Assembly (NCBI GenBank): GCA_949825065.1 | Contig: OX463850.1 | Coordinates: 250,501 to 314,500 of the forward strand | Direction of reading: 5' to 3' | DNA length: 64,000 nucleotides | DNA from: Odontocerum albicorne | Taxonomy: Eukaryota > Arthropoda > Insecta > Trichoptera > Odontoceridae | In this document: positions 1-64,000 of the stretch, in pieces | Position numbering within the stretch: the stretch's first letter is position 1 | Layout of the letters: every line of letters starts with the position of its first letter | The notes under the pieces: model-generated | Databases searched by the model: none | Seen by the model: only the letters and a program-made list of their open reading frames with translations | What the model was told of the DNA's origin: nothing | Made by a program: the position numbers and the translations under genes

Positions 1-152
1 ATGTAGTGTATTTATGTATGTTCAATGAAATTACTTATAAAGATGTTTAAATACAAATTTAAATCAATTAATTTATTAATGTAAAAATGAAGGAATGGTT
101 TAATGTAATTCATAGTCATGATAAACGTACTCAGAAGCATTAAAATTCGAAA

Positions 153-286
153 TGTGACAATTGTGGTCATGAAATGTGACAATTGCGGTCATGAAATGTG
201 ACAATTGCGGTCATGAAATGTGACAATCGCGGTCTTGAAATGTGACAATTGCGGTCATGAAATGTGACAATTGCGGTCATGAAATG
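153..286. repeat. 22-bp tandem array, about 6 copies
   Basis: Six head-to-tail copies of a 22-bp unit built on GTGACAATTGCGGTCATGAA, with single-base differences (TGTGG in the first copy, a TCTTG variant in the fourth). The unit contains the 6-bp palindrome CAATTG. No coding sense. Flanking sequence on both sides is plain AT-rich DNA. Confidence 0.9.
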
Positions 287-518
287 CGGTAAAAACCAAT
301 TATAATTGCAGAAAATAATGAAAATCTAACATTAAGATTTGATAATTTAACATATAAGCATAAATTAAATACTTGAAGTTTGATCGATAAAATTGGCAAT
401 GTTTAATTGTTTTTCAAATGAGTTTCATTTATTTTATCGAAGGTTCCTGCTTTGAATTAGTGGAACTCTATATTAGAATTTTATAAAATAAATCGATTTG
501 TTATTCCACTACACGTTG

Positions 519-605
519 ACGAAGTATTATAGCAACACAACAGCTACACGAAGTATTATTATAGCAACACACAACACGCTACACGTGTTGCTATAATACT
601 TCGTA
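519..605. repeat. Inverted repeat with a duplicated left arm
   Basis: Two direct copies of a roughly 21-bp arm reading ACGAAGTATTATAGCAACAC (about 519-539 and 548-570; the second has an extra ATT) are followed by its reverse complement at 585-605. The transcript could fold into a hairpin using either left arm. It may be the end of a small foldback element; no flanking target duplication is obvious. Confidence 0.75.
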
Positions 606-1011
606 TCATAAGTTTTATTTTTTTTATTTATTGATGAAAATAAACGTGGAACGTTCAATGCAAATACGAGTATATTGACCCCTGATTTATAGGTAAATGA
701 ATACAGCGGAGCTAAGTACAATACTATAGATGGCTTATTTGCTCATTAGCCTCCTGGGGTTTCTGCTTCAACTTCCGATGGTGCCTAAAACTGGCGTATG
801 TTATGTTATGTTATGTTGTTTAACGGATGGGAGTGTTTCTTTTACTAACAAACGTTTTAATTTCTTGACGTTATCTTATTATACTAGAAACGGAAACAAT
901 AAGAAGTCCGATTATTCTTCTGTCATTAGAAATGTTATTAAAGAATTATAGGATAAATATTTATATTGAGTTACTTTAATTAAACATAACCAATTTTAAA
1001 ACAACAACTTC

Positions 1012-1150
1012 ATAGACACTAATACTCGTATAACATAGACACTAATACTCGTATAACATAGACACTAATACTCGTATAACATAGACACTAATACTCGTAT
1101 AACATAGACACAATACTCGCATAACATAGACACTAATACTCGTATAACAT
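1012..1150. repeat. 23-bp tandem array carrying TACTCGTA
   Basis: Six copies of a 23-bp unit, CATAGACACTAATACTCGTA plus TAA. Five copies hold the intact octamer TACTCGTA and one has the variant TACTCGCA. The octamer is part of every unit, so it was present before the array expanded. Confidence 0.9.
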
Positions 1151-1274
1151 ATTTTACTTTAAACGACCCTAGATTTAAGCTTACTTAGAAAGTTGCATAA
1201 AATAATTCATTTTCCTTTTTTTTTCTACCACCTTAATTCATCAAAGCGTATTTTCAGAGAGATGACGCAGCTTA

Positions 1275-1560
1275 TACAATATTTATACATACATACATTA
1301 ATATCATCACGCCGTGTCCCTTGCGTGGTAAGCAGAGAGAAGAGATCTCCACCATTTTCTATCCAAACACAAAACTTTCATTTACTTCACATATTCACAC
1401 TCGTCATGCACCATTTTCTATTATTGTTTGCCTCGGATTACTTGTTCCTCACACATCTCGCCCTTCTGACTTATCATTCTTAGGCCATTCTCACTTGTTC
1501 ATTCTTAAGCCATTCATTCTTAGGCCATACTCGCGTGTTCATTCTTAAACAATTAATTTA
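1275..1560 (-). mobile_element. Possible LINE 3' tail (RWFGHVE-type family)
   Basis: The stretch starts with CATACATACATTAATATCAT, then a CGCC-GT-CCC-GGTAAGCAGAGAG block. That block resembles the reverse complement of the last coding and 3' region of the LINE family seen at 42.4 and 50.9 kb ('CATCACGCC...CCCT...GGGGTAAGTAGAGAGG'). The downstream pyrimidine-rich part contains several TCATTCTTA direct repeats. No reverse-transcriptase motif remains, so the assignment rests on the tail only. Confidence 0.35.
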
Positions 1561-2702
1561 TTCCACTTGTACCAATCATATTCATACTTTAAATTATAGT
1601 TTTTTTTTAATTTCATTTAAATGTTGACACAACTCTACTCTACACTCTTAAATGGCATATATCAGTTATCTTAATGCATGTTAAATATTATCTTAAACCC
1701 GCGAAATCCACATACAAACACACATAAACGTGAAATTTAACAAAAAAATGTATACAATTTCAATGAAAATCCCCGTCCCCAAGCCGCGACCAAACAAGAT
1801 ATAAAATCAACATACTGACTTGTCATACACATTTCAAACTGTCGCCTCACCTCCCCTCACCTCACCTCACAAGTGTTGACACATTTTATTTATGTATTTA
1901 TTTGTGTATTTAAAAAAAATCAAATTTTCTTATCGTGGGCTATAGAAATTCGATATTTTTTAATCAATGTTTTACATACGAGTAAAATTATTGAAAATAA
2001 TGAAGCGTTCGCTTTTGTTTTCTTACAAAACGTCGACATGTGGCAATTAGAAATGAATGAATGAATCAATTTAGAGCGGTGTTGACATTGATGAATTTCG
2101 AGCAAATATTGCGAACAGGTTGTTTCGATAAGATGAAAGGAATTCGCTATCGAAGCAAAAAATATTAAAATGTTTGTTATAGTTAATTAAAGAACAACTA
2201 CTTTCCTTTTTATTTCTCCGCCCTCCACCTGTGGAAAGTAAACATTGCTTTTTAAAAATACTCGTAATATTCTTCGTGAGGAACCACACCAGACCAGACC
2301 AGGGAAGCAATGGCTAATAAATATTTTTTTAAATAATCTCTTGTACATAAATAAGGATTGTGCGTAGCTGAGAAATCTTGCAAATTTGATCCACAGTCGC
2401 GTCGAGTCGAGGACCGCACATGAAGATTTATAAAATGTGGCGTGATGTTTTGGTAGGCAAAGGAGTCTCTCATCTCCTGATCGAAGAGAACGTCCGTATT
2501 CTAAAAGAAATTGGAATTTTTCGCGAAGATATGAAGGAAAATTGGGATTGTCAAGTATACCAAATAATGTCGACATATTACGCAGGTTTCTTCGCTGCCT
2601 GATTTTAAACCATTGAAGTCTATTCTGAAACTCTGCCACGTGGTCATTCATTAGGCACTCTAATAATTTAATTAAAGAATAAGACGCCCCACTACATTAC
2701 CC

Positions 2703-2790: not shown

Positions 2791-3689
2791 ATTCCATATA
2801 ATTTATATTCTTGGCAGCTTTTACTTCACTGGTTTATTGCACAGAAATATTATTTTGCGTGTGTAGTACAAAATAGCGTGTGTTGTACAAAAAATACTTA
2901 TTATTAGGAAAATTGCTCCGAATCGATTATGAATCATGTCTAGGAGCCAGCGGTAATATATAGTTCTTCCAACTCATGAGTTACGGGTTCGATAAGGGTC
3001 TAACATTTAATTTTAATGTACTCGTAATTACTGCTTTTTCACACACAAACGCTGCAATGATACATTCGCTTAGAAGTCTAAACGGGTATACGCAAGAGTA
3101 GGTCATGAGAGTTGATTGAGTGGTTTATAGATTTAAAGTGAGTTGTTGAATGGCTCAGAGGGAGGCGTATACTCGTATATGGTAATTAACAAGTTAAATA
3201 TAAAACGTCTGATTACTCTCCTTAGACAAGATTTATGAGCGGTCACAGAGCGCTGGGATCGGTGCCCGGTGCCCGCTGCCCGGGGCCCGTGTAAGCCAGT
3301 ATCTCCGCAACATTGACTTTGGAAAGAAAGTGAACTTCATACGACTTTGTTAAACACTCATTATTTTTTATTTGATGGCAGGTGCGAACCCATAAGTAAC
3401 TGGATTTCAATAGATACTCGCACATATAAACATATAAACGAAACAGATGCACAATACAAATAATCGTACTAGTATGGAAATATCTCAATAATACTCCATT
3501 TCCGATTTTTTGCATTATCTTTAATACCACGAATTTCCACATAAAATGTTCTTTATAATATTTTTTTATTATGGCATTTTATATGGAGTGAATGAAGTTA
3601 TCTCTAGAAAAATGTGTTTGACATTCCGGTGACAGGAGGTTGTCATATATCCATACTGTCATACTGTACAAGTACAATACAATAGTTGT

Positions 3690-3960: not shown

Positions 3961-4424
3961 ATCGAAATACTCGTAAATATCGCACATTTAATGCAATCAT
4001 GATTACTTAGTTTCCAATAACGAATAATAAATCTACTTTAAACTAAAATTCTGGCATCGCTAATTAAACCTCTAATGTTAGCAACATCATTATAACGTCG
4101 TAGGATAATATACTCGTATCTAGAATATCACAACGTATAATAATGACATTGTCCACTCGCTCATCCGCTCGCTCCCACTCGCTATTAGTTATGTTCTTAC
4201 TTGATCACAACCGGACTCTTTTAATTTTTTCATGCTTTTACAGCAATTCGTACTTCTTCTGGATTCATCTCATTCATATTTTCTTAACGCTCATCACGTT
4301 TAACTTTAGGTTTCTTTGTAGTTCCTCTCCCTTCGCTTAGGTTTTTGCGGTTTTTTTTTAACAAATAAGTTTTCCTAAAGATATGCTGCTGCGGAGATGT
4401 ACTCGTACCTAAGCTGATGGCTCG

Positions 4425-4765: not shown

Positions 4766-5104
4766 CTAACTTTCTATCATATGGGCATGCCTTGAAAATG
4801 TATAAGGAGTATTTTTATTATTTATTAATAAACGGTACAATGTAGCTTATAACATTGGTAATTATAAGAAACAGGAGAAAGTGCTTCATACATCACAAAA
4901 AATAATAAAAATAAATAAAACAATTCCAATAAAAATAATTGCAAAGAAAGAATCAAACAATGACATACATAAGTACGAGTATTTCAGTAATTACACACGT
5001 TACACTCTTACAACAATGCAAAAATTCAACTATATGAGTCACCGACACAATACGTTGTTAATTGTTAATTGCCTCCGTATGATATCTCTACCCACCGTTT
5101 GACA

Positions 5105-5215: not shown

Positions 5216-5384
5216 AGATTACCATAAGAAATAAGCTCATCAGTTTGTATAATACGAGTATATACAAAAGAGTGCAATACAATATAATACTCGTATATCC
5301 CAATTACTTCAGCGTACACCTCTATATTTTCGTTAGAAGCGGTTTCACGTTTAACTTTGCTCAGATTCATAACTCGATGGATTG

Positions 5385-6412: not shown

Positions 6413-7610
6413 TCATTTATCCTGAAAGCCCAAGTACTCAAAATCCTGTCGCAATAACAACCACGCTACGATCGACTGTCTAAATGGTTTTCCTCCCTTT
6501 ACCTTTATTGAATTCGGCACGCCATTGTATGTCATGGGAGCCAAATAAGCATATTGCCTTTGGGCTAAAGAGGTTTTAACTCTAGGCATGGTGAACATTT
6601 TATTAGATGCCATGCGTGTCATGTGTCTCTGCTGAGTTTACATCTTCCCTTCCTCTCGATGGTAGTGCCAGAGAATGGATTTGAGATGCAAATTGGCTAT
6701 GTTAAGGACCCGATACTCTCTGAAAAGTTCCTGCCCGGTGCGATACCGGGCAGGAAGTTTATTAATTATTTTCACAATCAATTTTTAGGAAACCTGCAAT
6801 ATGTGTTTTTGGGTTAAGGTGCATCCCCCCAAACTGATATACCGTAAGAAAGTGCTGACTGACTTAAGGCGAAGTATATACTCGTACAATAATTTTAAGA
6901 ATATTTTCACTGAGCACATTTCGAATCATACGGAGTATGTATCCTAGTTTTCTGATTTTTGTGCTCAAAGTGTTAATATGGACCTCCCAACGAAGGAACT
7001 GATCAACATAAACTCCAAGGTACTCGTACTTTATACTATCAACCCTTTCCAAAGAAACACAACTACAATCAGCCATGGGTGAACAAGTGTGCAGTGTTAT
7101 GTATTTATTTGTAGGTGCTTGAGTTCTTATAGATATGCTAAATGTGATGTATTTAGTTTTATGGGAAATTAGAGTCAATAAATTTGAGTCCACCCATTCT
7201 TTAACTGCACGTAATTCTTCGTTAGCCTTTTGGATGACTTTCTTGTATTTTTTTTCTGTATTGCTTGTAAAATGTTATTGAGTGTGGATCACTGCATGTC
7301 TTGAGTTCCCGGTGCAGACGATCTCTTTTGCGTATACAATAAATCAATCCGTCAGTGATCCAAGGTTTGAGTTTTGTGTACCTTCTGCTTCTACTGTGTA
7401 TTGTCTGTGTGGCTGAGTTGATATGGGAGTTAAAAGCATTAATAAAGCTCTCCAGAGCTTCATTTACACTATGGGACTTGAGAGTGTCTTGCCAATTCTT
7501 CGAATCAAGGGAGTGCAAGAGCTCTGGTATGTTCGTAATTATTTTACTCTTCAAGCCCATCTTTATTTGTCTACTTGCCCCCTCTGAATTTTTTTATATT
7601 CGAGTTCCTT
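6413..7610 (-). mobile_element. Jockey-like non-LTR retrotransposon, internally deleted
   Basis: Reading the - strand from 7560 down: a segment with LKPWITDGLIYCIRKRDRLH, the linker that joins endonuclease and reverse transcriptase in jockey-type elements. The core of the polymerase is then missing. Next comes the region past the catalytic motifs, EELRAVKEWVDSNLLTLISH, then KTKYITF and YLGVYVD. After 6864 the frame resumes with GGCTLTQKHILQVS, IINKLPARYRTGQELFREYR and LNIANLHLKSIL, and it ends with PRVKTSLAQRQYAYLAPMTY and VAWLLLRQDFEYL. The copy has stops and at least one deletion, so it is inactive. Two in-frame 6-bp TACGAGTA insertions lie in it, at 7021-7028 (IKY-EY-LGV) and near 6879 (KII-VR-VYTS). 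Confidence 0.85.
6728..6756. repeat. Perfect GC-rich hairpin inside the LINE
   Basis: Twelve-base arms TTCCTGCCCGGT and ACCGGGCAGGAA around a 5-base loop GCGAT. On the - strand it encodes KLPARYRTGQEL of the jockey-like protein, so much of the symmetry may come from codon choice around that motif. Confidence 0.7.
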
Positions 7611-10164: not shown

Positions 10165-10340
10165 GTTGATGACCTGATACATCGTATGTTTTCATACGAT
10201 GTATGATCTAATACATCGTATGTCATCATACGAGTATGGTATGATACATCGTATGTCATCATACGAGTATGGTCTGATACATCGTGTGTCATCATACGAG
10301 TATGGTCTAATACATCGTATGTCATCATACGAGTATGATC
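10165..10340. repeat. 33-bp tandem array carrying TACGAGTA
   Basis: Five units of TGATACATCGTATGTCATCA plus TACGAGTATGGTC. Four units contain the intact octamer; the first unit differs (CATACGATGTATGATC). The unit has internal dyads around ATACATCGTAT and CATACGAGTATG. Confidence 0.88.
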
Positions 10341-10974
10341 AATTGTGCTTATCGTTAAAAAAATATTTAATTATTTGGACTCGCTAGCCTACTTATGTAT
10401 TATTTTGTCTCGTGTGTTAGTCGTCTACTTATGTATTATTTGAATTTTTTATTGTGTTCATGTGTCTTTTTATTTGGTTTTATCGTAATTGTTATAATTA
10501 TTTATTTTTTAGCATTATTTTTCTTTATATTAAATGAAACGAAACATTGTGCCTTTGATAAAAACAAATAAATAAAATTCATTTGAGATGTAATTGTATC
10601 CTTATTAGACTTTCATAAAGATTCAAACATTTTTAAATTTAATTTTAATGAACCACCGCAGGTACATCAAATGACCGCAGGTACATCAAATAGTTATTTT
10701 CGGGAAAATTTGGAAACATATTTTTCATTTTCAACAAAATTATTATTTCAATTAATTATATTTAAAAAGATTTTTTTTTGCTGACAATGAAATTCTTTCT
10801 ATAACATATATTGATCGGTAGAAAGGCTACAACTTTCTAAAATGCCTCTTAAAAAATGTTTCAAAATAAAACCAAAAGACTTTTAAAAATGAAATCAAAT
10901 TTAAAATGCATTTTTTGCCCCGTAAACTAAATAAATAAAGCTTACAAGCACACGCAACATACTCGTATTGCTGT

Positions 10975-11089: not shown

Positions 11090-12235
11090 GTGCTCGATTT
11101 ATTCTTTATTTTCGTTATCTTGAGTTTTAGAAAGTATCGCGATTTTAGTGCAGGCTCCGGTAATAACATGTCGTGGGTGCCGTCACTTTCTTTCTTTGCA
11201 CCGCAGAAGGAACCATCCGTTACGTTACCTTCAGGTGGACAGCCGCCGTTGAGGAGTTTGCCGCCCGATCGCTATAATCAAAAGTGCCACCTCCTTGGAA
11301 CTACCATTCAGAAGAACTTTATTTTTACTATTTATTATATAATAAAATGTATATACTCGTATATATGTGTTATATGGTATACATCTACTAATGTAATGTG
11401 GTTATTTACGTAAAACCTGTTGCAATATGGCTATTTACTTTTTTTATTTAAATTATCAAATTACCTTTTTGACACAAATAATACAAAAATAATACAGAGA
11501 AACCTCTATTGTTTTTGAAAGGACTTATTGAATCGAAAGAAAAATAAGGAAATATACGAAAAAAATATATAAACTAAAATGTTCAATATTTTCAAAAACC
11601 TACACACATGTACCTATACGTGAATTTGTGTAAATAAAGATAAAATATTCCACCAAGACAAATGAAGGAAAAATATATTCATTTAATGAAAATCGTCAGC
11701 CATGTTCGTTTGTTTTTTGCTTTTTATTTCCATCAGTTAACAGTTGCTTTTCCTTGTTGGCCATTATTTTTTAAATCTTTTATTTTCCGAATGCCGCACA
11801 TGCTTTCTAAAACGAAGTAACATTGAGCGGACCTTTTTCATCAAAATCTTCAACTACTTTAGATGTTTCTACTCGTATCTTCTATCATCTTCAGTGTGGA
11901 TGGGGTGGGATGGCCGAAGTGACAGCCGAGGAAACACGTGCATCTCGGACGAATGTTTGATATTGTCATTATGTTTGTTGAAACTACTTATTTATATTTT
12001 GCTAAGAAATATGGTTGCAATATTTTGGGAAAACGATCGGTCAAATAAAATATTTCAAAAAGCTACAATATTCTAAACAAATATTGCCGTAAAAAGCGAT
12101 ACATTTTTACGTGCTTTATACAAAACTGGGACTGAATGAAATAGACGATGAATACGATAAAATTATTTTATGTTACTATCCAGAAGAACGAGCAATCGAG
12201 GTTTCACTGTAATTATTAATCAATATTTATATGTA
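11090..12235. other. Unassigned stretch
   Basis: AT-rich with a GC-richer patch at 11150-11300. Open frames up to 110 codons occur on the + strand (11090-11413, 11744-12076), but their translations are phenylalanine-, leucine- and isoleucine-rich and show no domain. Isolated TACTCGTA octamers occur at about 11355 and 11869. Confidence 0.5.
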
Positions 12236-15014: not shown

Positions 15015-15715
15015 TTGAATTCCCTGCAGTCGGCTTGCATACTCCTACTCCTACTCCTACTCGTACTCACTGAATTCCCTGCAGTGGACTTGCATACTCC
15101 TACTCCTACTCGTACTCACTGAATTCCCTGCAGTGGACTTGCATACTCCTACTCCTACTCGTACTCACTGAATTCCCTGCAGTGGACTTGCATACTCCTA
15201 CTCCTACTCGTACTCACTGAATTCCCTGCAGTGGACTTGCATACTCCTACTCCTACTCGTACTCACTGAATTCCCTGCAGTGGACTTGCATAATACTCCT
15301 ACTCCTACTCGTACTCACTGAATTCCCTGCAGTGGACTTGCATACTCCTACTCCTACTCGTACTCACTGAATTCCCTGCAGTGGACTTGCATACTCTTAC
15401 TCCTACTCGTACTCACTGAATTCCCTGCAGTGGACTTGCATACTCCTACTCCTACTCGTACTCACTGAATTCCCTGCAGTGGACTTGCATACTCCTACTC
15501 CTACTCGTACTCACTGAATTCCCTGCAGTGGACTTGCATACTCTTACTCCTACTCGTACTCACTGAATTCCCTGCAGTGGACTTGCATACTCCTACTCCT
15601 ACTCGTACTCACTGAATTTCCTGCAGTGGACTTGCATACTCCTACTCCTACTTGTACTCACTGAATTCCCTGCAGTCGGCTTGCATACTCCTACTCCAAC
15701 TCGTACTCACTGATG
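15015..15715. repeat. 49-bp tandem array, about 14 copies, carrying TACTCGTA
   Basis: The unit reads CTGAATTCCCTGCAGTGGAC, TTGCATACTCCTACTCCTAC and TCGTACTCA. It contains EcoRI (GAATTC) and PstI (CTGCAG) sites and the octamer TACTCGTA next to a CTACTC microsatellite-like run. Terminal copies carry CTGCAGTCGGC in place of CTGCAGTGGAC at both edges, so the variant copies frame a homogenised interior. Confidence 0.93.
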
Positions 15716-15719
15716 ATTC

Positions 15720-16140
15720 AAATCTTTTTTGGGGGTTTCTATCTCGGCGTCTAAACATCATTCCAGTTCGTGAAAGTTGTTTAATAAACGTTTATATTCG
15801 AATGCCATCGATTATTTTATTTGTAATGTTTCATTTCAATTCTTTTTTTATCTCTTGTAGAGACAAAATAAAGCATTTATTGTACATTGTGTAATTATTG
15901 ATTAATATTTATTTTCTCTTATAGGTTTCTATAAAACAAGTTGAATATGACATAAAAGGTATTAGAAAATACACTGACCAACTCGTATATCCACCATAAC
16001 GTATTTTACAAAGTATGCTTACCAAAATAAGTAAAAAAATCATAATTTTAAGTACTTTACGAAGAAGAAGAATCGCATTTGAACCATTGAACAGTTGAAA
16101 CATTTAATATAGCTTAAGTAAATTGTACGAGTATAGGCAC
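15720..16140. other. Unassigned stretch
   Basis: AT-rich, with short open frames that lack recognisable motifs. A TACGAGTA lies at about 16126, and a degenerate ACTCGTA at about 15980. Confidence 0.5.
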
Positions 16141-37245: not shown

Positions 37246-37249
37246 TTAC

Positions 37250-40624: not shown

Positions 40625-40800
40625 ATTTAGTGACAATCGTACGACGTCTATCTTACAGCTTGAGAATTACAGGTTCGATTCCTGTTGGAACCTTGTTTTT
40701 TTTATGATTTCAGTATGATTTTCATTTAAATCCTCCATAACATCTACTCGTATCTGGTTAGTTGGAAGATATTGGCACATGGCAATATACCAACTAGATT
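40625..40800 (+). mobile_element. SINE family A copy, with an octamer insertion
   Basis: The B-box half reads TTACAGGTTCGATTCCTGTT, then GGAACC...TTTTTATGATTTCAG, a body CATAACATCTACTCGTATCT, GGTTAGTTGGAAGATATTGG, and CAATATACC. Compared with 10021-10090 (TTACATCTTTCTGGTTGG), it has six extra bases that create TACTCGTA at 40745-40752. Confidence 0.7.
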
Positions 40801-42864: not shown

Positions 42865-44640
42865 AAAACAAATAATGTGCAATACTTTTTTTTATATATT
42901 ACGCATATGTTTAAAATGATAAAAATAATGGTGAACCATATTCATATTTAATGAAATTGTCGTACAATAACGTCGCAAATAATTGTATTAGGGATGGACT
43001 TTTAAAAAAAATATCCGAGACTAATTACACCCATTCGAATGCCGATGGGTTAAACTTGTTAAACAACGAAAAATCCATTGAAATTGCATTCATATCATAA
43101 CATACATCCTCTAGCAAACCAAGGAGAAAGGGAAAGATCATCTAAAGTCGACCAAATGTAATTCACAAGTATTTTCAGCTTTGTGCACTAACTTCACTTT
43201 CCGTTTCGTTTAGGATCTCTTATTTGTAAGCTGTGGTTATCGGCACACTCTCAAAAGATGTGACGTCACAATGATTTAGAGTTAAATAGGGATACCACAC
43301 TCAAACTAATATAAATGGGACCTTTCATAATTTAGGAAAACGATTACTATTAAAATATCTTGAATTTTTGTTTACAATATTTCACTCTATTAATCAAATT
43401 AAATTGATTTGTTAATTTTCTAATATAAAAATATTCATTTGTAAAAAAACTCGTATTATATTTTCAGTGTGTACCTACAATACAATGTACTAGACTTGGC
43501 GACATTTTTCAACATGTGTTATTAGTCAGAATGTATAAAAAGAAAACTGAGAAATGTATTTAATATGTAACCATCAAGAGTCGAATCTGATACTCTCGGA
43601 TGAAGCACTATTGATCTCTGCGGAGAACTTTAATTCGGCGTTATTAGTGTAAAAGAAGTACCTCTACTTACCAACGAAATTCCCTTTTATTTAAACTATA
43701 TTTTTGGAAAATCAATTGGCGGTGATTGCCAATATATTATAATACTTTATTATATTATAGCATGCGTAGCTATAAAAGCAGGCTAAGTGCAGAATTAATA
43801 ATGTATACGATTTGTATGATACAGTACTATTATTTTCGAACTAATGTCAATTTGGTGTGGTGAGGTGCGGATATATTGTTCTTTTTTTGTATTATTGTAA
43901 TCATTTTGACTTGTGTACTTGTTTACTTATATTATATATTATTTTAATTGTTTTATTGTGTTGATGTATCGTTTTATTTGGTTTTGCCGAGTGGTTACGA
44001 ATAAATAATGTAATTTTTCTTTTTAAATATCAAGATTACTCGTATTTTGTAAATACACATTGTTAATGCAGCACTTACTACTTTTTAAACATATTTTTGA
44101 GGCACGTTGTTGTACCGTTGATGAAAAAAAAAACAAAATAAATAATGTATTCAACTGAGCTACAAAATACTCCGAGATAATCATGTCTAGTCGGAAGGGC
44201 TTGTATGAAATATACGAGTAGCTCTTCAAAAACGGAATTTCACCATGTATATTAATACCCAGTTGACAGCATATTTTTTTCACTTTCAATGTTGATCTAT
44301 GCTTTTTTCGATATATCAAATACACCCAAAGATTTGCTATAATGATTTGAGTTTTTCACATCCCATATACATCCAATTTTTCTTACACGTTGACTTGTAC
44401 AAACTGTCTGAAATACTTAGTTTAAGGTACGAGTACCGTCGATACGTTGGAAACTTTTACACTATAGTCTTAAAATAACTAAAAAGAGAAAGGTTTGGGA
44501 AATTGTCATATTAATACGATATTATTCACGATAGTAAATTTCGTTTCCAAATAAATAACGAACAATTTCGAAACTTGGACATATATTTTACATGTTGTGT
44601 TTTTTCAGGCTTTCATGGCTATTCTATTCTATCAGTTGGA
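42865..44640. other. Unassigned stretch
   Basis: AT-rich. Octamers at about 44036, 44213 and 44429. A 100-codon frame on the - strand (44325-44023) has no recognised domain. Confidence 0.5.
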
Positions 44641-44688: not shown

Positions 44689-44859
44689 TAGGTTCGTAGT
44701 GCGTACCCATAATAAATAATCAGTTTAGATTAAATAAACTGATTTATGTCCTAATGGAATTCATTCTTTCTTACTTTATTTATTCAATGTGTAGCAAAAT
44801 TCATCGTTCTAAGCAAGAAAAATAAGTTATTATTGTTTATACTCGTATATTATTTATAG

Positions 44860-47790: not shown

Positions 47791-48359
47791 CCACAATGTT
47801 GTTAATTTGACATTGTAATAGTTTTGCCCCTGCCCTTACCTTCACCTAGAAGGTGAGGGAAAAACCCGCACATTTTATATCGAAATAATTTTTCTTTCCC
47901 TAAGTGTGCAATTAGATAATGCAATTATAACTTAAATAATATAAATCCGTGTTCAGTAATGAGCCCATCCATGCTTGAAAGTCATAGTTTAAGGAATTTC
48001 CCGCTCAACGATTGTTCAATGACTTCCGAATAATGACTAAACATGTAGGTATTGTATGTTATACTCGTATTGTGTATTACAATTGTTTTGAAATTTTTAA
48101 TTTACATAAAAACTCATCTCAGCTATTTAAGATCTGCATTAAAGATTTGATACTTTTCTCTTAATGAATGAATCAACAATTACTTATAAATTAACCTGAA
48201 GAAACAGAATAGAAATATATAACATAATGTATAATAATGTAATACAATATATACTAAATGCTATTTTTTTTAAATCCTGTACTACTCAAACTTATGTTTT
48301 TTGTCAACCTCAAATAAGTCGATAATGACGTGAAATTTGAGAATTTCGCAATTATAAAC

Positions 48360-48745: not shown

Positions 48746-50583
48746 TGCACGTATTTCTACAACATTTATTCAAATCCTTTCAGTATTTTTCTACCTCCAC
48801 GCGTTTCTTCTATGCATCAAAATGGCAATATTATAAAATATACAAGTATTTATTGTATAAAATAAGCGTATTTATTTACGGTAACCCACAAAACCCTTTA
48901 AGTATACGATTATATATTCAAGTTTAATTAATATTTAAAGGTTCTGAAAAATATCGCGTATTTAAACTTCTGTAAATTGAACTGGATAAGAGTGTGGATT
49001 GTGGATTGAATGTCAAGAATCAATTACCACAGATTTAATATTCTCGGACAGTTTAAATGATGTTAATTTCATTGCCATTTTTGATACTGTTCGCCGATAA
49101 ATTAAGTAAGTGAATTAACTACCCATTTCAAATTCAAGAATATATCATACATCTAGTAACATTTTAATGTCCGGAATCGAACTAAAATTGTATAAAATAT
49201 AAAGCCCCGATAATCTAATTATTTTTTAATAATACTCGTATCGCAGTCTGTCACTTGACATTATTTATGTCTTAACGCAAGAAACAAAAACAGCTGTGAA
49301 AAGTTTTTGTTATTACAATCGCATTTTAAAATTATGATTGCATGATTTGTACTCGTGCTCTTTTTCTAATTAATCGAATTACACATAAAAATTCGCAATT
49401 AAAACAGATTGATTTAAATCATTGTAACAAATTGTTCTTGACAATACTTTTACAAATACACGCCGCATTGTTAATGCGGTTATACTTATTAATATGGAAA
49501 TTAGAAAGTGAATAATGTGTAAACATAAACATAAACGAGGCTATCATATATTTTCCTGGCTCAGCATTTAAAATCCTTAATACGTTTTTATAATAACTTG
49601 TTAAATTTGATTGTATTTTTTAATAAATAAAAACACCTCTGGCATATTTTTAAAGCGATTTTTTTTATCCTGAATCACTTGACTGACAATTAAACTCGAG
49701 CAATAAAACTTACAGGTTAACTAAAAGTTAAAAAGCACCGAAGAATCTTTGGGTACGACTTTATTAAATAAGTTTTCTTTTTAGACCTTGTTCTTTATTG
49801 TATCTACTCTTCTCTTACATTTGTGCCAGATCATGTCTCTGACGTTTACAATAATCAGAACATAAGCCTTTTTGTCTTGCACCAGATATATCAGTCTAGT
49901 TCCTGATAATATAATACCAGAGATCTGCCTTCTTCGGGCCCTTTGTTGACCCTCGATCACATAGGAGTCCATACACCAACACCTCTTGCTACTATTTTAT
50001 AGTCGGTATAATCTATCTAAACCACTCTTTTATTCAGTCAACACAACTTGCTTACTGAAGTCAGTTGTAACAACTTATTAACTAAGTTAGTAAAGCAGTA
50101 TTCTGTATGAAATGCGTTATCCTTACTTTATATAAGTACAAGCAAGGCATTATTTTAAAGTAAGTGCTGAAACGGTTTATACTTAATTATTATCAATTGC
50201 TTATTGCCAGCGAGTTTGTCTTCAATCAGCATTATCTTCGTTTTCAAAAAATGCCTCAAATCGATTGATCAAAATCATTATTTTCTCGAAACACCTTGAT
50301 ATTTTCATATTTTCCTACCAAAATATACTGAACACATAACAACTAGAAGTACAATTGAAACATACCTCAAAGGAGGTTGCGGGGCTGAAAATAATAAACC
50401 TCATTAATTACTAAAGCAATACCGTTAGGATGGATATTTATTTCTTTCCTATCTCTTCCCCATTATTTATTATATATCTCAGAACTAAAAAATACATTTC
50501 GAACATGGTTTCTTGCCTGACCTCTCTGATAGTCTTTCATTTCCAGTCGATTCTTACAAAAATAATTTCCCCGACCGAAGGTC

Positions 50584-50680
50584 TACGAGTACTACGAGTA
50601 GATATCTCGATTGAAGATTTCCAAGTGTCGTGTACTCGTATCTGCGATAATATTGGCATCCAGTGTTACGAGTACGAGTA
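50584..50680. repeat. Cluster of five TACGAGTA/TACTCGTA octamers
   Basis: Octamers at 50584-50591 and 50593-50600 (CTACGAGTACTACGAGTAGA), about 50634, and two overlapping at 50667-50680 (TACGAGTACGAGTA). The last is TA-CGAG-TA-CGAG-TA, as if a second event used the TA made by the first. Lies in intron 1. Confidence 0.9.
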
Positions 50681-51600: not shown

Positions 51601-52889
51601 ATATTAGAGATTCCTTATGAAAGCGTTTTCCTTCAAAACTTAAATTCCCACCAGTTCATACATTATGTCACGCGACAGTGATCTTAATGGAACAACACTA
51701 ATTTCTAGAGAAAAATAAATAAAGGTTTATTCATAGCAACATAGTAGGTACGAGTATATACATATTATGTTGCTCGGAATAAACATGTTAAGGCAATGGA
51801 AAATAAAATACATTTGAGAGAGAAGCCATCAAATGGTCTGGGCTAAACTCGTAACATTCTCCTACATTCTCGAGAACACCCCCACCAACAAATAGTAGGG
51901 CGAATTTGGCCGCGAGGACGTCCGAGGTTTTTCAACATACACCCTTGTACACATAAATTATAATACAAAAATACAATAAATACCATAAGTAGTCAATACT
52001 GTTATAAACTCAATAAATCAAAAGTCAATACTGTTATAAACTCAATAAATGTGTATGTACGAAAATAGCTCGAGATATATTATACATATGTGTCGTTCAT
52101 AATCGTTCTTTACACCAATAATTTAATTATAAACCTTTATTTTTAAAACTACATGATATTAACCCTTTAGTTTTAAAAATTAAGTTTTATATTCGAAATA
52201 AAGTTTATGCAATATTTTACATAAATAATCTGAAATTTATATAAATAAATAGCTTTCGATAAATTGTGATTTTTAACAACAGTTCGGCGACTGAGAAATA
52301 AATAAATATATGATATTTTTCTGAAATAGTGAGTTGGCCCCGAGAGAACACTCCGAATGGATTACCCCTTCATTATTGATTAAATTATAGTATATTGATT
52401 GTCGCCTGCACCGCACCGCACCGCAGCGGGTTGTGGTAGCCGTAACAGCGTTTTATTTTATTTTTTCTTAAAATAACCATTTATTTCGTTTAATTCGTTT
52501 ATTGTGAAAGTTCACATTCGCACGTGCATGTCCAATTGATTATATTCATTTCCTTCTTCCAGTTTCATGCTGGGTCTAGTTTTGATGACCGTAACTCCAC
52601 ATTTTCAGACTTTTCCTACGAAGAACGAGTATGGTTGATGTACTATAAAAAGCATAAAAAATATCCGCCACACAATGACCGGGTGCTTCGAATTTGAAAC
52701 TTTGTTTTGTTTACTGTTTGTTCTTTCAGACATGAAATGTTTACTATCTGTTCTTTCAGACATTAAATGTATTTCTAAATTAATATAAAATTAAAACACG
52801 TAATAAAGTGGAATCAAACAAAGTAACGCCAGACTTATTAAAACAACTATGTGACTAAATTTGAACTTTGAATTGTTCAACCATCATAC

Positions 52890-54640: not shown

Positions 54641-55714
54641 TATCCACTGTACTTTTGAATAGTTCTACCAATCGCTAAAGTTTTCAAGTCATAAATATCG
54701 TCGAGTCCCCTTTTTCAATATTACCTGATGACAACTCGACCTGATGCTATTCGACCATCGTTAGTCTTCACTTCACTTTACTTCTCAATCCAGTTTTCAA
54801 GTAATATTTTACTGGAACGAACTATTATTCCAAACTAGTCGAAACCAATATTCTAGTTTTACTGACACTTAAAAAATACATTTTCTTGAAATCTAATTCT
54901 CCATAAATATATAGTCACATATCTGAATTTACTGTCCTGAATTCCTTAAATACGAGTATTTGGCACAACAGTAGTTTCTTGCATATTCTCACACTGCTTC
55001 CTTACCTTCAAATTGTTATTGGCACTAATCACCCTCTTTATAGTATTGAATGCCTAATTAACTAAAAATTATTAAAAACAATGTTTATAGTTTGTTGCGT
55101 TGGATGCATTGATGTTCGACTATTCGGTAAGGTTTTTGTTTTACATAACCCGGAGAACATAACTTGTAATGCCATCGAAAGCCATTTCTGCCAAATCAAC
55201 ACGCCATCAACTCGAACATTTTAAACTAGTAAAACGCCTGTCTTTAAATATTTCTAAGTCGAGTGAATAGCCACTCTCTCGCCATTGTTTCTTTACCTTT
55301 GTTTTAAAGGTCGCATAACCATTACTTAACAACAACAATAACTCGAGGGGTCACGTCACTTTGCCTTAACACCTCTACAATCCAAATCCATAGTTCCAGT
55401 CGAGCCGGGCGTGCACCTCTTGAACAGCAAGTGCCTCTGCTACGGAGTAGTACGGCCGACCTTGGTCTCTCAGCACAGTGCTCCACATTCCCTCCTCTAC
55501 CCGGTGGCCGCATGCTGTGTACGAGTATGCACATGTCCTAGTACTGTGTAACACCGACTTAAGTTGTTACCGGCCGTGGCCGCGTATTCTTGTTCTTAAC
55601 AAATAAATCCCCGCCTGCCGGAACTGGTGGCCGCTTTGCGTGCTTTCCTGATCCTACTCATTATCGTATTTCACGTGCGTTTATTTAAATATTAGAAATC
55701 TTATACTGTTTTTT

Positions 55715-57285: not shown

Positions 57286-57824
57286 GATACGTCTTGATAT
57301 AATTTTTTCGCGTTACTTGAATAAATGTAAACTTTGTAAAAGCGGAGTAATATAACAATATTTATGACTACCATATATATTGTTATATTACTCTAGTATT
57401 AGTCTAGCAACTGCGTTGACAACATATTGGAGTTTCGTTATTTGTGAGTCAGATTACTGAGCTGCAGTATGTTTGCGAATCCAAACGTGGTACAACAAAT
57501 TTATTTAAAAAGTTTAAAATATTACATACGTCTCTACACAGATAGTTGTTTAATAACAAACCAGACATTCACCTTACCCATTTCGTTAAGCATTGTATAA
57601 ATCAGAGAGGATCTTGGCTGCCTGCAGGATCCTCTGGTACTTACCTCTTAGAAACGCCTCTCCTCGTTATTTACATGTAGAGTACAAGTCTTCCATCACA
57701 GCACAAAACTGTCTCCACTTTCTTACGCCTCTTCGGATTACTGAATAGAACCTTTGTTTGCAGGGGATATACTCGTAAGTGCTATACTCAGCTTAGCTGA
57801 GAAATTTCAATAATATTTAGTGGT

Positions 57825-58132: not shown

Positions 58133-58947
58133 TTGTAAAGCTTAGATACATATACAGGTCTAACTCAATGACAAACAGAGTTTATGTACAGGAACGATAA
58201 ATAAAAAAATAATTGTTAAGCCGAAACATTGCTAAGAAAGTTCATCGAACTTTCTTTTAAAACATTTTCTGAAATGTTGAAGATGTCAATATTCGACGCT
58301 CTATTAAAAAAAACAAAGGCACTTGATAAGTTAGTTCAACTTATTTCCACTCTAAATAAATCAATATTACTGTACTTCAAATAGTTGTCAGGATAATTAA
58401 ACTATAGTATTGTCTAACAAAGTTGGATTAGGCGTCAACAACTTAAAGATATAAGGAAATACCCTCACATCCCTCCTCACGCTTAGAAGACAGTATCCCA
58501 ACATACTTAGAAGAAAGCTTGTAGGGTAGTCACGGGTGGAACTGCACTCACGTAAGTAGAGAAGTCTCAAAAAAATATTGGGACTTGTACACCATTTGAG
58601 AGTTACGAGTATTATACGTTTGTCTTTAAGTGCTCTTGTTAAGAACTTTGCATATGTGTTGAATCCATGAACTTCTGCACAGATAAAACAAATTTGAACA
58701 AACAACTTCACTTATAATTAACGAGTTAGTTTTGATACGCAACATAAAGGGAACTAATAAATAAAAGGAAAGTGGGAAAATTGTAAAATTACCCATGATA
58801 AGTCGACATGTGATCAATTTCAAATCACAATCATTAGGTTTTTTATTTCTTCGAAATCGAAGTACTTGATATTCAAAAACATTTTATTAGCAATTTACTT
58901 TCCAAATCACAGTTGAAAAATATCAAATGTTTTTTTTTTTTTTTCAG

Positions 58948-59697: not shown

Positions 59698-60397
59698 GTA
59701 TGAATGATTTTTTTGAAAATAAATGTTTCACAGTAATAAATAGGTTCAAGACCCTCATCACCTGGTGCTAAAACATTTGTCATCGTTTCACCTGAAGATT
59801 TTTTGTGTTGAGTTTCCGATAACAAAATCCTAGCCTATTTTGTTTACATAAATGCTTTCTTAAAATATTGCATTGCTTGGAAGAAATTATCAAAAATGCA
59901 ATTATGTATATTACGTACACATAATACGAGTATATGGTTAAATTAGTTGTGCTTTCTGAAGCTGCCCTAAACCACGAGTATCTGGTCTCTCATATACTCG
60001 TACGAGTAATGGACACGCAATGCAGTGGGGCAAAGTGCTATATATTTCTAAAACTTGTCTCATAATCTTCAAACAATCTACTTCGGTAACTGTGCTCTGG
60101 ACGGAAGAAAATAGTGATTAAATAATTAAATGTTTAGACGTATCACTTGGTCCTTAGCGTGTATCACCCCCGCAATCGCGATGTAAAAGGAAAGCTGAAT
60201 ATTGTGCGGAAGGGAGTTCAGTTGTAACATTGCGAGGCTTCTCGATATCTGATAGTACTCGTATTGTTGAACCGTACCAAACACTGCATCTGTACAGAAA
60301 ACAAAGTCAGTGCTAGAAATACTCGTAATACCCTTCGGAAACTCGCTGAGACGTCATGGGAAGTACAACCACACACATTAGGAGTGTAGGAGTGTCA

Positions 60398-60800: not shown

Positions 60801-61504
60801 GTTTGTCAGAACATCGGGACTTCATGCTCTAGACAGGGACAGGACCTGATCGATGCGATAGGGCGATCTCTGTTGATTCCTACTGGAAATATGTGGCATC
60901 ATTTATGGTCCGGACACGGAAATGAAATGACTTCATACTTCATATAATCTTGATTAAGCATGCAGTCGATAATAACAATTTTTTTCACTGTAAAATGTAT
61001 ACAGCCTTTGTTATGTCATTAGATTAGGACCAAAAATAGTATATTATTGTGACAGCTTGACTGGTTGGTTGGCTATGATTAACCTTGGAATAATAATGTC
61101 AGTACGAGTATTTCTCTCTCCGCCCCCAGCTCCAAGTTGAACACTCTTACTTAAATGCCGTTCAATTATTGTTTTTGCTCCACTAAACTCCTTCATGTTT
61201 ATGTAACGTATATTTAAGCTATAAATACGAGTACATGGTCACACATTTTCAACATGCGCCAAAGTAAAATTGCAAACTGTTGACTAAATAATTACAAAGT
61301 ACGAGTATGTTATTAAACCCTCCGTTGCGGTTCACAGAATACTCGTAGGCCAAATATTATTGCTGTTATCAAAAACAGCCGCGAAATAATGTCTGCAAAA
61401 TATATTTTTTATTTATATTTTCCTAATTTTACTTTTATAGAAGTTTTTATAAAATAATCACAGAACAATAATAATACTAATAATATTATAATAAAATGAC
61501 AATT

Positions 61505-61690
61505 TAAATGGCGCCATTTAGAGAGCAAATTCTCTTCAGAAACGCTTTAACAAGGAACTAAGCCCATTGTAATATTGACATATTAAAAATACTACAATAT
61601 TAATATCTATAATTATGTACTTCTCCGTATCTGCATATGTTCAGAAAAACACATTTGGTAAGAAAACCGCAGAAAACTTTCTTTGATTTA
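61505..61690 (-). mobile_element. Retroelement family B, short copy
   Basis: On the - strand: AGTTTTCTGCGGTTTTCTTA, CCAAATGTGTTTTTCTGAAC, ending with CGTTTCTGAAGAGAATTTGC, TCTCTAAATGGCGCC. It has an internal deletion compared with 54335-54640. Confidence 0.65.
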
Positions 61691-61834
61691 TTCCTTGTTT
61701 TTGTCCGGAGTGTGCACATTCTATGTTGGTTAAAATAATAACCTATAACTCGATCCAAGATTATAATAAAAGTTATATTTCTTATTGGAATTTAACAAAG
61801 TAAAAATCTATAGCAGTGCTCATTTTGAGATGCC

Positions 61835-62035
61835 GTAAAGAACCAACACTCTCATCCGCTAGACTTGTTGCTCACACCGTAGATTTGAGAATCGTGCGAG
61901 GGTTGTTGCCTCTTCAGGTGAGGATAATATTACCAACACGCACGATAACGAACTGCGAATTCCTAGCCTACTCCAGTGGTTCTAAATCCGAAGACTAGAT
62001 CAATAGGGCCGAAGACAATATTGTCTCACAGCCAC
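61835..62035 (+). mobile_element. SINE family C, degraded
   Basis: Head-like CTCATCCGCTAGACTTGTTG, body TTACCAACACGCACGATAAC, GAACTGCGAATTCCTAGCCT, ACTCCAGTGGTTCTAAATCC, and GACAATATTGTCTCAC. It ends about 100 bases before the acceptor of exon 3. Confidence 0.6.
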
Positions 62036-62154
62036 GCTTTACCATGTGTCCAATGCACCTGTTTACATATGTTGTAGAGTACTTTGAAAATAAAAACTTA
62101 AAAAAAATAACTAACATACAAAATTTCAAATGTTACATATCACAGTTGTTCCAG

Positions 62155-62436
62155 GATGGTCTGAGTGGCAAGGTCCAATACACCCAAGAGATTCCAGTCA
62201 CCATGATTTACCAGCAGCAGCCTCTGACCAAGCAGAGCTACCAGCAGTCCCAAGCCTACGCGGCTCCTGTTGCCAAGACCACCTACATCCAACAGCAGCC
62301 CACCAAGACCGTGTACGCCTCCCCAGTTGGCAAGGCCTCCTACCAAGCGTCCGCTCCTGTAGCCAAGGCCTACTACCAGGCCCCGGTAACCAAATACCAG
62401 GCTCCTGTCGCGCAGCAGTACTCCATCAGTCACTAA
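62155..62436 (+). CDS. Cuticle-type structural protein, exon 3 (C-terminus)
   Basis: Starts at DGLSGKVQYTQEIPVTMIYQ if the acceptor at 62154 is used (LFQDGL if 62145). It continues QQPLTKQSYQQSQAYAAPVA, then KTTYIQQQPTKTVYASPVGK, ASYQASAPVAKAYYQAPVTK, YQAPVAQQYSISH and TAA. The AAPVAK/YQAPV repeats are characteristic of low-complexity insect cuticular proteins, and the tyrosines fit cross-linking in sclerotised cuticle. The full product is about 347 residues (4 + 250 + 93), or 350 with the alternative acceptor, with an 18-residue signal peptide. A + frame upstream of 62155 is intronic. Confidence 0.85.
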   Translation, partial: DGLSGKVQYTQEIPVTMIYQQQPLTKQSYQQSQAYAAPVAKTTYIQQQPTKTVYASPVGKASYQASAPVAKAYYQAPVTKYQAPVAQQYSISH

Positions 62437-62995
62437 ATAGGTTTAATAACACGTTTGATCGGGACGAACTGGAGACTTACACATAAAGTGAACTGGAACA
62501 ACTCCATTGTCGCTGATGAATCCGTGCCTATATTCAGGCTTTGACCTTTATTATCTGGAACCTTAGACGATATTCCCCACTACACATTGTATTATTATAT
62601 TAACACTTTTATTGTTAACGAGTTTATTGTCCATGTGACCACTTCTTTCAAACATTCAGAAAGGTGTTTTGAACAAGTCTTAAGTGAAAACCAAACTGGA
62701 ACACTATAATTAATCTTGGTTTTTCGAACCTGAAATATCCGGGCTGGAAAACAGATATCTTACCCACTAGGTCACGGATCATCCTAAATGGCAACATCCA
62801 AGCCCAGTAGCATTGGCCTACCCATTCTCTTTCGTGGCTGAGAAATTTTAAAAAAATATTAAGAAACGAGATAAAATACCGTTAAATGTTTCGACTCTTG
62901 CAATTAATGGGAATAAGGAAAATGAATACGATAATTTCATTAGATTCTCTACTTAACGTTATGCGGCATTAATTGCTTGACAAAGAAATAAAATT
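62437..62995 (+). other. 3' untranslated region of the cuticle-type gene, with a SINE
   Basis: The first clear AATAAA polyadenylation signal after the stop is at 62987-62992, about 550 bases downstream. Between them, on the - strand at 62655-62785, lies a SINE family A piece (CCGTGACCTAGTGGGTAAGA, TATCTGTTTTCCAGCCCGG, GGTTTTCACTTAAGACTTGT). If this is the real end, the transcript carries a reverse SINE. An earlier, non-canonical signal is possible. Confidence 0.5.
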
Positions 62996-64000
62996 GTGAT
63001 TTTATTGAAAGGAAACGAAATTGCAAAGGGTTTTTGCTAGCATCTTGCAGCTTTCGCTGTTTTGATTATAAACAAATCGATTTATATTTTATCTTGCCGT
63101 ATCTACACCGAGTGTAGATATTCGTAAGATATAATTATAAAACGTAAATAGGTGTTGAAATGTTATCTCGTTTCTAGATATAATTTGAAACCAAGATATA
63201 ATTGATTCAGCGATGAGTGAAGACTTCTGGTTCGTCTTTGATTGCGCGTTCTTAGATTATTTTGTACTTCACATCAAAAAGGGTATTTTATTCCTAAATT
63301 TTGCAAGTTATGTAACTTAAAATCATAAAATTGCAAAACTTGCAAAATTTAAAAATCTGCTTTAGTCATTAATTTTAAGAAACTTGAAGTATGATAATAA
63401 CATAATTGTTTCATTAAAACATTGATTGAACAAAATTTGACAGTTAATCTCGTGTGCCATTTGTAGATGGCGAAGTTTTCGGATCCGTTCGAGTGAAGTA
63501 TTCAATTCATTCAAAAAAATATATTCTTCGATAATTTCATTTGTTTCTAAGAAATGAATGAGATTTTGTTATATAATTTATGTTAAACATTCTCTAAAAC
63601 AAATAAAAAATCAACGGTTTTGAACACAAAAAGAAAACATTATATATCATAAATATTCTTGCATTATGTACTCGTATATTAAAACTTCTTTCTGTGGAAA
63701 TCTTGTTTTTTCATCGCTATTATTTCTTTCTTTATTAAGATTTTTTACAATTTTTCAATACTTATCATTTTTATTTTTTAATACTTCCACTTTTTCTTTT
63801 ATTCTATATCATTTATTTTACTTCAACCATTACACATTCTTACACTTTAATACACATTTTTTTATACATAATTTATATTTCCTGTGTATTTGAAATATAA
63901 CAAAACACGAACTTCAAATGAACTGTGATCAACAATAAACATTTAAAAAAAATACATATTTAAATTTCTTTTTCTCCCCGACCTACCCCTTCATTTTAAT
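62996..64000. other. Unassigned AT-rich DNA
   Basis: No gene or known repeat. Short dyads GTATCTACACC/GAGTGTAGATA at about 63100-63120 and AAATTGCAAAACTTGCAAAATTT near 63330. An octamer TACTCGTA lies at 63668. The last 250 bases are T-rich. Confidence 0.5.

What the first reader, a model, noticed from the sequence alone, without database searches (positions are those of the whole stretch)
1..64000. A TA-CTCG-TA octamer saturates the window, in the form of transposon excision footprints
TACTCGTA or its complement TACGAGTA occurs at about 58 places outside tandem arrays and about 37 more inside six arrays (counted by eye). With AT near two thirds, a hand estimate for both strands is 2 to 3. The word is a 4-base core between two TA dinucleotides. 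Tc1/mariner elements duplicate TA on insertion, and imprecise excision leaves TA plus a few terminal bases plus TA. As I recall, Minos (Tc1 family, from Drosophila hydei) has ITRs starting CGAG and leaves a 6-bp footprint of this kind. If so, this 64-kb region records dozens of insertion-and-excision events of an element that is itself absent here. I know of no genome described with this density of footprints.
Basis: partly seen in the sequence, partly recalled or inferred. Interest (0 to 1): 0.95.

Follow-up and report, generated by a model that had tools for sequence, protein, structure and literature searches.

The report
Transposon exit scars pepper insect-like DNA
This 64,000-base stretch of probably insect DNA carries one 8-letter word 59 times outside tandem repeats where about 2 are expected; in five of eight places where a related copy can be compared the word is a 6-letter insertion, so most copies are likely scars left where a jumping gene landed on a TA and later cut itself out.

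Summary
TACTCGTA/TACGAGTA occurs 93 times: 59 outside tandem arrays and 34 in six arrays. Markov models of order 1-3 expect 1.4-2.7 outside arrays, and no TA-N(0-7)-TA word that lacks the octamer comes near its enrichment.

The footprint reading passed tests that could have broken it. Of eight loci with a comparable sister sequence, five show a 6-bp (or 2-residue) insertion at the octamer, one is inconclusive, and two arrays made the word by other mutations. Flanks are palindromic, A-N-A-TA-T-N-T, around a non-palindromic core, like the ATATATAT targets of Tc1-like elements. Orientation is 29:30. Two scars are nested in others. There is no halo of one-mismatch copies, so the scars are young, at most about 3% divergence if they accumulated steadily.

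Minos ends in TACGAGCCCC and leaves a 6-bp footprint, matching the word. 'Element absent' needs a correction: a decayed mariner with one TA-CGAG end lies at 27025-27987. The parent is unproven; genome-wide and orthologue tests could not be run.

The parts
36103..37232 (.). 202-bp tandem array holding the cleanest scar: of 11 sister half-units, 7 read AAATGTACACA-TA-CGTA and 4 read AAATGTACACA-TACGAGTA-CGTA (octamers at 36296, 36498, 36700, 36902; probably one event copied with the array)
7021..7028 (+). octamer scar inside a decayed LINE reverse-transcriptase frame: IKYEYLG against IKYLG, a 2-residue gap at the octamer
   Evidence: BLASTP and tblastn against P0001, the only homologue found
22542..22549 (-). 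octamer scar; paralogue at 56979-57092 is 6 bp shorter here
40745..40752 (+). octamer scar; paralogue at 9944-10112 is 6 bp shorter here; a third copy (near 46564-46760) has other bases here
37247..37254 (-). octamer scar in the last, diverged unit of the 36103 array; the 11 other units are 6 bp shorter (10 with TG, 1 with TC in place of TA)
50667..50680 (-). nested pair TACGAGTACGAGTA (octamers 50667 and 50673): a scar within a scar, same orientation
59995..60008 (.). nested pair TACTCGTACGAGTA (octamers 59995 + and 60001 -): a scar within a scar, opposite orientation
6879..6886 (+). octamer in the same LINE; the frame also shifts here (11 extra bases by hand count), so the test is inconclusive
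665..672 (-). octamer, single copy
1977..1984 (-). octamer, single copy
2259..2266 (+). octamer, single copy
3019..3026 (+). octamer, single copy
3170..3177 (+). octamer, single copy
3968..3975 (+). octamer, single copy
4111..4118 (+). octamer, single copy
4400..4407 (+). octamer, single copy
4974..4981 (-). octamer, single copy
5253..5260 (-). octamer, single copy
5288..5295 (+). octamer, single copy
10960..10967 (+). octamer, single copy
11354..11361 (+). octamer, single copy
11870..11877 (+). octamer, single copy
16126..16133 (-). octamer, single copy
23926..23933 (-). octamer, single copy
26568..26575 (-). octamer, single copy
30629..30636 (+). octamer, single copy
33946..33953 (-). octamer, single copy
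34497..34504 (-). octamer, single copy
34804..34811 (+). octamer, single copy
35974..35981 (-). octamer, single copy
37309..37316 (+). octamer, single copy
37676..37683 (+). octamer, single copy
37705..37712 (-). octamer, single copy
39281..39288 (+). octamer, single copy
39637..39644 (-). octamer, single copy
40602..40609 (-). octamer, single copy
44037..44044 (+). octamer, single copy
44213..44220 (-). octamer, single copy
44428..44435 (-). octamer, single copy
44840..44847 (+). octamer, single copy
48062..48069 (+). octamer, single copy
49233..49240 (+). octamer, single copy
50584..50591 (-). octamer, 9 bp from the next one
50593..50600 (-). octamer
50633..50640 (+). octamer
51749..51756 (-). 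octamer, single copy
54951..54958 (-). octamer, single copy
55520..55527 (-). octamer, single copy
57770..57777 (+). octamer, single copy
58604..58611 (-). octamer, single copy
59925..59932 (-). octamer, single copy
60256..60263 (+). octamer, single copy
60320..60327 (+). octamer, single copy
61103..61110 (-). octamer, single copy
61226..61233 (-). octamer, single copy
61300..61307 (-). octamer, single copy
61340..61347 (+). octamer, single copy
63669..63676 (+). octamer, single copy
1011..1151 (+). 23-bp array, octamer in 5 units, one further unit mutated (TACTCGCA): probably a scar copied with its array; no unit without the insert to compare
30644..30822 (+). 45-bp array, octamer in 3 units, one further unit mutated (TACTCGTG); no unit without the insert to compare
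31619..31869 (+). 83-bp array with two octamers in each of 3 units; no unit without them to compare
10174..10337 (-). 33-bp array, octamer in 4 units; a sister unit has TACGATGTA, so here the word differs by 1 bp and is not evidently a scar
15040..15713 (+). 49-bp array, octamer in 12 units, adjoining TACTCC hexamers, so probably a point change, not a scar
27025..27987 (-). decayed mariner copy with 32-bp terminal repeats (29/32 identical); the low-coordinate end reads TA-CGAGGCATATCC inwards, the other TA-CTATGCGTATCC: a possible relative of the parent

Best explanation
Most of the 59 non-array octamers are likely excision footprints of a cut-and-paste transposon of the Tc1/mariner superfamily whose ends begin CGAG, as those of Minos do. 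Inferred steps: the element inserts at TA and duplicates it. The transposase then cuts 4 nt inside each 5' end, which leaves TA-CGAG overhangs on both flanks. Host end-joining uses one overhang or the other as a unit, which leaves TACGAG-TA or TA-CTCGTA, a net gain of 6 bp. Shown here: the 6-bp gain at five loci, the palindromic AT-rich target, the equal orientations, the nested pairs and the lack of a halo of decayed copies. Not shown: the parent element, its 4-nt stagger, or empty orthologous sites.
For: (1) 59 seen against 1.4-2.7 expected (orders 1-3), and specific to one core. (2) A 6-bp length difference at the octamer in sister sequences: the array at 36103 (TA in 7 of 11 half-units, TACGAGTA in 4 of 11), 37247, 22542 and 40745, and a 2-residue gap at 7021 in a LINE frame against P0001, the one homologue found. 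In 55 non-array paralogue alignments only 3 of 126 gaps are 6 bp long, and 2 of those 3 are octamers; both octamers that fall in these alignments face such a gap. (3) Flanks after removal of the core are symmetric, with A enriched at -1 (0.55 against 0.36, p 9e-7) and at -3 (0.57 against 0.35, p 2.5e-5); of ten positions tested, two others are nominal (-4 p 0.047, -7 p 0.043). No left-right asymmetry (p at least 0.15 at each of 6 positions) although CTCG is not a palindrome. SB, ZB and Bari target ATATATAT. (4) Orientation 29:30. (5) Two nested pairs, one in opposite orientation, against 0.73 expected if scars fall on random TAs (P of 2 or more 0.17, so consistent). (6) Minos end primer TACGAGCCCCAACC (PMC3680223) and 6-bp Minos footprint (PMC10992017). 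Tc1/mariner footprints are 2-4 bp (PMC7913693) and equal the 3' overhangs in SB (PMC7827188).
Against: No intact parent was found: 252 TACGAG...CTCGTA pairs of 60-6000 bp were scored and the best inner match was 15 of 30 bases. The one CGAG-ended element seen is a mariner copy; SB and mariner transposases are described as nicking 3 nt inside, which would predict TACGATA/TATCGTA, not among the five most enriched TA-N3-TA words. Octamer 6879 has 11 extra bases and a frame shift (by hand). The third paralogue at 40745 carries other bases at the gap, and the partner sites at 37247, 22542 and 40745 do not read exactly TA (one base off); only the 36103 array shows a literal TA. Two arrays made the octamer by other changes. 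Mixed-repair words TACTAGTA (1) and TACGCGTA (0) are at background, which requires that mismatched overhangs are resolved as a unit. No orthologous locus or second genome was examined.
Confidence: 0.88

Rival explanations
1. A variant on parentage, not exclusive of the footprint reading: the parent is not Minos-like but a mariner of the kind left at 27025-27987, one end of which also reads TA-CGAG; the scars are footprints of that family.
For: It is the only CGAG-ended TA-flanked element noticed in the window, with 32-bp terminal repeats and a Transposase_1 domain.
Against: Its other end reads TA-CTAT. Mariner cuts are described as 3 nt inside, but 3-nt words with this core are not among the five most enriched.
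Confidence: 0.3
2. The octamer is a regulatory or architectural protein-binding site kept by selection.
For: Very high density and near-perfect exactness of the word.
Against: It is a 6-bp insertion relative to sister copies. It has symmetric flanks with no strand preference, shows no excess of one-mismatch variants (33 seen, 36.8 expected), and sits in a dead LINE frame and in nested copies.
Confidence: 0.04
3. The germline carries intact elements at these sites and they are cut out en masse in the body cells that were sequenced, so the scars are made afresh each generation, like TA-bounded IES removal in ciliates (recalled comparison).
For: It explains exactness without decay and the lack of elements.
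Against: Scars are copied and mutate inside tandem arrays (TACTCGCA, TACTCGTG units; four identical scars in the 36103 array), as expected of germline DNA.
Confidence: 0.04
4. A sequencing or assembly artefact, or hexanucleotide (TACTCG)n slippage.
For: Two arrays do seem to derive the word from other repeats.
Against: 59 copies lie in unrelated flanks, by eye, with a palindromic target signature, a nested pair in opposite orientation, and array copies that mutate.
Confidence: 0.02

Closest known systems
Minos (Tc1-like element of Drosophila hydei) excision footprint
   Same: End primer TACGAG... (PMC3680223, passage; a second Minos primer ends ...GGGGCTCGTAGA, PMC5225594, passage); 6-bp footprint at excision sites (PMC10992017, passage). 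The predicted scar TACGAGTA/TACTCGTA is the word seen.
   Different: No Minos-like element seen in the window. The passages read describe footprints at single excision sites, not about one per kilobase.
Sleeping Beauty, ZB and Bari (Tc1-like) target choice and footprints
   Same: Palindromic AT target centred on TA (PMC7913693 and PMC10573994, passages); footprint equal to the 3' overhang (PMC7827188, passage).
   Different: SB has a 3-nt overhang; ZB leaves 0-3 bp.
Stowaway-type MITE excision footprints in a Triticeae beta-amylase intron
   Same: Scars of a DNA transposon read as history at one locus (PMC1925063, abstract and outline).
   Different: Five different putative footprints at one site; here one identical scar at dozens of sites.
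Mariner copy at 27025-27987 of this window
   Same: One TA-CGAG end, TA at both ends, Transposase_1 domain.
   Different: Other end TA-CTAT; decayed; the 3-nt footprint expected of it is not among the most enriched words.

Membership tests
Tc1/mariner excision footprint | Net insertion at a TA of TA plus the few terminal bases of the element | tested here: met
   6-bp gain at 5 of 8 comparable loci (literal TA in the partner at one, one base off at three, protein level at one); 1 inconclusive, 2 arrays of other origin
Tc1/mariner excision footprint | AT-rich palindromic target around TA | tested here: met
   A-N-A-TA-T-N-T, symmetric, p 9e-7 and 2.5e-5
Tc1/mariner excision footprint | Both scar orientations equally frequent | tested here: met
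   29 and 30 of 59
Tc1/mariner excision footprint | Empty or filled alleles at orthologous sites | not testable with these tools
   The genome search did not answer any of 13 identical requests; no insect collection is offered
Minos family | Terminal bases CGAG and 6-bp footprint | tested here: met
   word equals the prediction from the published end primer and footprint length
Minos family | Element with long terminal repeats and Minos-like transposase in the genome | tested here: inconclusive
   no CGAG-ended pair with terminal repeats in this 64-kb window; no search with a Minos transposase was made and the rest of the genome was not examined, so Minos membership is not claimed
mariner family at 27025 as parent | CGAG at both ends | tested here: inconclusive
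   one end CGAG, other CTAT in a single decayed copy
mariner family at 27025 as parent | 3-nt footprint | tested here: not met
   TACGATA/TATCGTA not among the five most enriched TA-N3-TA words
Protein-binding motif under selection | Degenerate variants and asymmetric flanks expected | tested here: not met
   no one-mismatch excess, symmetric flanks

The most novel reading that the evidence does not exclude
The whole genome is scarred as this window is: about 1% of all TA dinucleotides, roughly one per kilobase and on the order of a million per gigabase, carry the same exit scar. If so, one transposon family would rank among the host's main sources of insertion mutations within at most about 3% neutral divergence while leaving almost no copies of itself, and its scars would have seeded new minisatellites and altered reading frames.
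Probability: 0.55. Interest if true: 0.88.

Novelty: new variant of a known kind. Interest (0 to 1): 0.77.

Why it matters
In the papers whose passages I saw, footprints are studied at single donor sites. A genome that stores dozens of identical, nearly undecayed scars per 64 kb would let past transposition be counted event by event, give a natural target-site profile, show how the host resolves mismatched overhangs (59 whole-overhang words against 1 mixed word), and date activity by scar decay. Repeat annotation is likely to overlook 6-bp scars, so element activity may be underestimated wherever the element itself has been lost.

Tried and rejected
Rejected readings: a longer repeat family (the 59 flanks look unrelated by eye); a protein-binding motif; (TACTCG)n slippage; intact short elements with TACGAG...CTCGTA ends (252 pairs scored, best 15 of 30 inner bases); independent repair of the two heteroduplex mismatches (TACTAGTA 1, TACGCGTA 0). 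I counted the octamer in all 120 and looked at the 25 with most copies; I did not annotate them, and by their repeat words they look like repeats of their own rather than relatives of the window. Mariner relatives in viral contigs: none. Homologues of the 58927-59703 frame: none at E 1e-3. Naming the host: of 120 listed relatives (121 found) of the LINE frame at 19451-20125, 8 carry a species name, 7 insects and 1 sea slug, at 41-49% identity. Rfam at gathering thresholds: nothing. ARAGORN (run with its bacterial code): no tRNA genes. Literature: ten searches, two of them on narrower points (40 Minos end letters, 51 target sites), found no genome described with this density of footprints; I saw listings and starts of abstracts, several lists were capped far below the number of hits, and the library holds only openly licensed PMC papers. 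PMC5953449 speaks of Tc1 'footprints' in catfish; the passage mentions no excision. Clustering of sites exceeds random TAs (8 neighbours under 50 bp against 3.1 simulated, p 0.0085); I did not resolve whether this is local hopping, hot spots or DNA of different age.

Full report
OBSERVATION. TACTCGTA/TACGAGTA occurs 93 times in the window: 59 times in 56,451 bases outside tandem arrays and 34 times in six arrays. Markov models give 1.45, 2.04 and 2.66 expected copies (orders 1, 2, 3), or 1.36 at order 3 when octamers are removed before training. Orders 4 and 5 give 7.4 and 25, but they are trained on words that contain most of the octamer itself. It ranks first among the 8-mers with 5 or more copies, of 21,804 distinct 8-mers seen. 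Of TA-N(0..7)-TA words it is by far the furthest from expectation (59 seen, 1.35 expected, p 1e-73), apart from longer words that contain it. Weaker outliers are TAACATA (42 against 17.2, p 3e-7) and TAGGGTTATA (5 against 0.12, p 1.6e-7); the next TA-N4-TA word is TACACATA (14 against 4.25).

IT IS AN INSERTION. The window holds its own sister sequences, so the 6-bp prediction could be tested. (a) In the array at 36103-37232, 7 of 11 sister half-units read AAATGTACACA-TA-CGTA and 4 of 11 read AAATGTACACA-TACGAGTA-CGTA; the four lie 202 bp apart and are probably one event copied with the array. (b) The last unit of that array, at 37247, is 6 bp longer than the 11 others, of which 10 have TG and 1 has TC in place of the TA. 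(c) Octamers 22542 and 40745 lie in non-tandem paralogues, and both show a 6-bp gap in the partner. Among 126 gaps in 55 non-array alignments only three are 6 bp, and two of those are octamers; no octamer in these alignments lacks such a gap. A third copy of the 40745 family has other bases there, and the partner sites in (b) and (c) are one base off TA. (d) Octamer 7021 lies in a decayed LINE reverse-transcriptase frame; against P0001, the only homologue found, the alignment has a 2-residue gap there (IKYEYLG against IKYLG). (e) Octamer 6879 in the same LINE sits at a frame shift with 11 extra bases by hand count: inconclusive. (f) Two arrays, 10174 and 15040, appear to have made the word by a 1-bp change and a point change. 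In sum: five gains of 6 bp, one inconclusive and two other origins, of eight testable loci. Three further arrays (1011, 30644, 31619) have no unit without the octamer position, and the other single octamers have no sister sequence in the alignments.

IT WENT INTO PALINDROMIC AT-RICH TA SITES. With the core removed, the flanks compared with 4,816 background TAs show A at -1 (0.55 against 0.36, p 9e-7) and at -3 (0.57 against 0.35, p 2.5e-5), counted from both sides; of ten positions tested, -4 and -7 are nominal only (p 0.047, 0.043). There is no left-right asymmetry at any of six positions (p at least 0.15) although the core is not a palindrome. Orientation is 29:30. Papers describe ATATATAT targets for ZB, SB and Bari (PMC7913693, passages) and SB (PMC10573994, passage). 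Two octamer pairs share a TA: TACGAGTACGAGTA at 50667 and TACTCGTACGAGTA at 59995. Simulation of 59 scars on random TAs, 300 runs, gives 0.73 such pairs on average and two or more in 17% of runs.

IT IS YOUNG. One-mismatch relatives number 33 against 36.8 expected at order 3 (39.7 at order 2), and eleven control words also lie near their expectations. The 95% upper bound on excess copies is 7.4, which under steady accumulation limits the age to about 3% substitutions per site. In arrays the word mutates normally (TACTCGCA, TACTCGTG), so nothing seems to hold it fixed.

MECHANISM. The word is what a TA-inserting element with CGAG ends and a 4-nt stagger would leave. Minos fits: a primer for its end reads TACGAGCCCCAACCACTATTAATTC (PMC3680223, passage), and it leaves a 6-bp footprint (PMC10992017, passage). 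The cut-and-join route is described for SB, with a 3-nt stagger, in PMC7827188 (passages). The two overhangs would pair with two inner mismatches, so independent repair should yield TACTAGTA and TACGCGTA; one and none were seen. I infer that one overhang is used as a unit. The parent, its stagger and the repair route are inferred, not shown.

PARENT. No TACGAG...CTCGTA pair with convincing terminal repeats was found among 252 scored. A decayed mariner at 27025-27987 has 32-bp terminal repeats (29/32 identical), with TA-CGAGG at one end and TA-CTATG at the other. It is a candidate relative of the parent, but the 3-nt words it would be expected to leave are not among the five most enriched. The longer mariner frame at 32083-33138 lies in an element of about 31920-33221 with other ends, and no octamer lies inside it.

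SCALE. 59 scars on 5,077 modelled TAs is 1.2%, or 1.05 per kb. Whether this holds genome-wide is untested: the genome search did not complete and no insect collection was available. The DNA is eukaryotic and probably insect (mariner transposases; of 8 species-named relatives of a LINE frame, 7 are insects and 1 a sea slug), but the species is unknown.

NOVELTY. Footprints are known. A region with this density of one identical footprint was not found in ten literature searches of an open-licence library, of which I saw listings and abstract starts, several capped. I class it as a new variant of a known kind.

Noticed in passing
window 149-63800 (TRF rows): 39 minisatellite arrays in 64 kb after merging overlapping rows by hand. 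Scar-like octamers in array units number 5 by hand count (1011, 30644, 31619 twice, 36103), where 1.7 would be expected from unit length (p 0.03): a weak hint that scars or their repair seed tandem duplication.
   Followed up: partly
window 16134-30628: Only 3 octamers (22542, 23926, 26568) in about 14.5 kb, while 1-8 kb and 48-64 kb are dense; sites are clustered beyond random TAs.
   Followed up: partly
window 5253/5288, 37676/37705, 50593/50633, 50633/50667, 61300/61340: Five neighbouring pairs 29-40 bp apart, all in opposite orientation, with inner sequences that look unrelated by eye.
   Followed up: no
window 31920-33221: Mariner copy with a 351-codon frame, HTH_48 and Transposase_1 domains and terminal repeats without CGAG.
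   Followed up: partly
window 58891-59703 and 61999-62436: Gln-rich and Ala/Pro/Tyr-rich frames resembling insect cuticle-type secreted proteins (by eye); no homologue of the first was found, the second was not searched.
   Followed up: partly
window, TAACATA words: TAACATA (42 seen, 17 expected) is the strongest TA-N3-TA word (p 3e-7); cause unknown.
   Followed up: no
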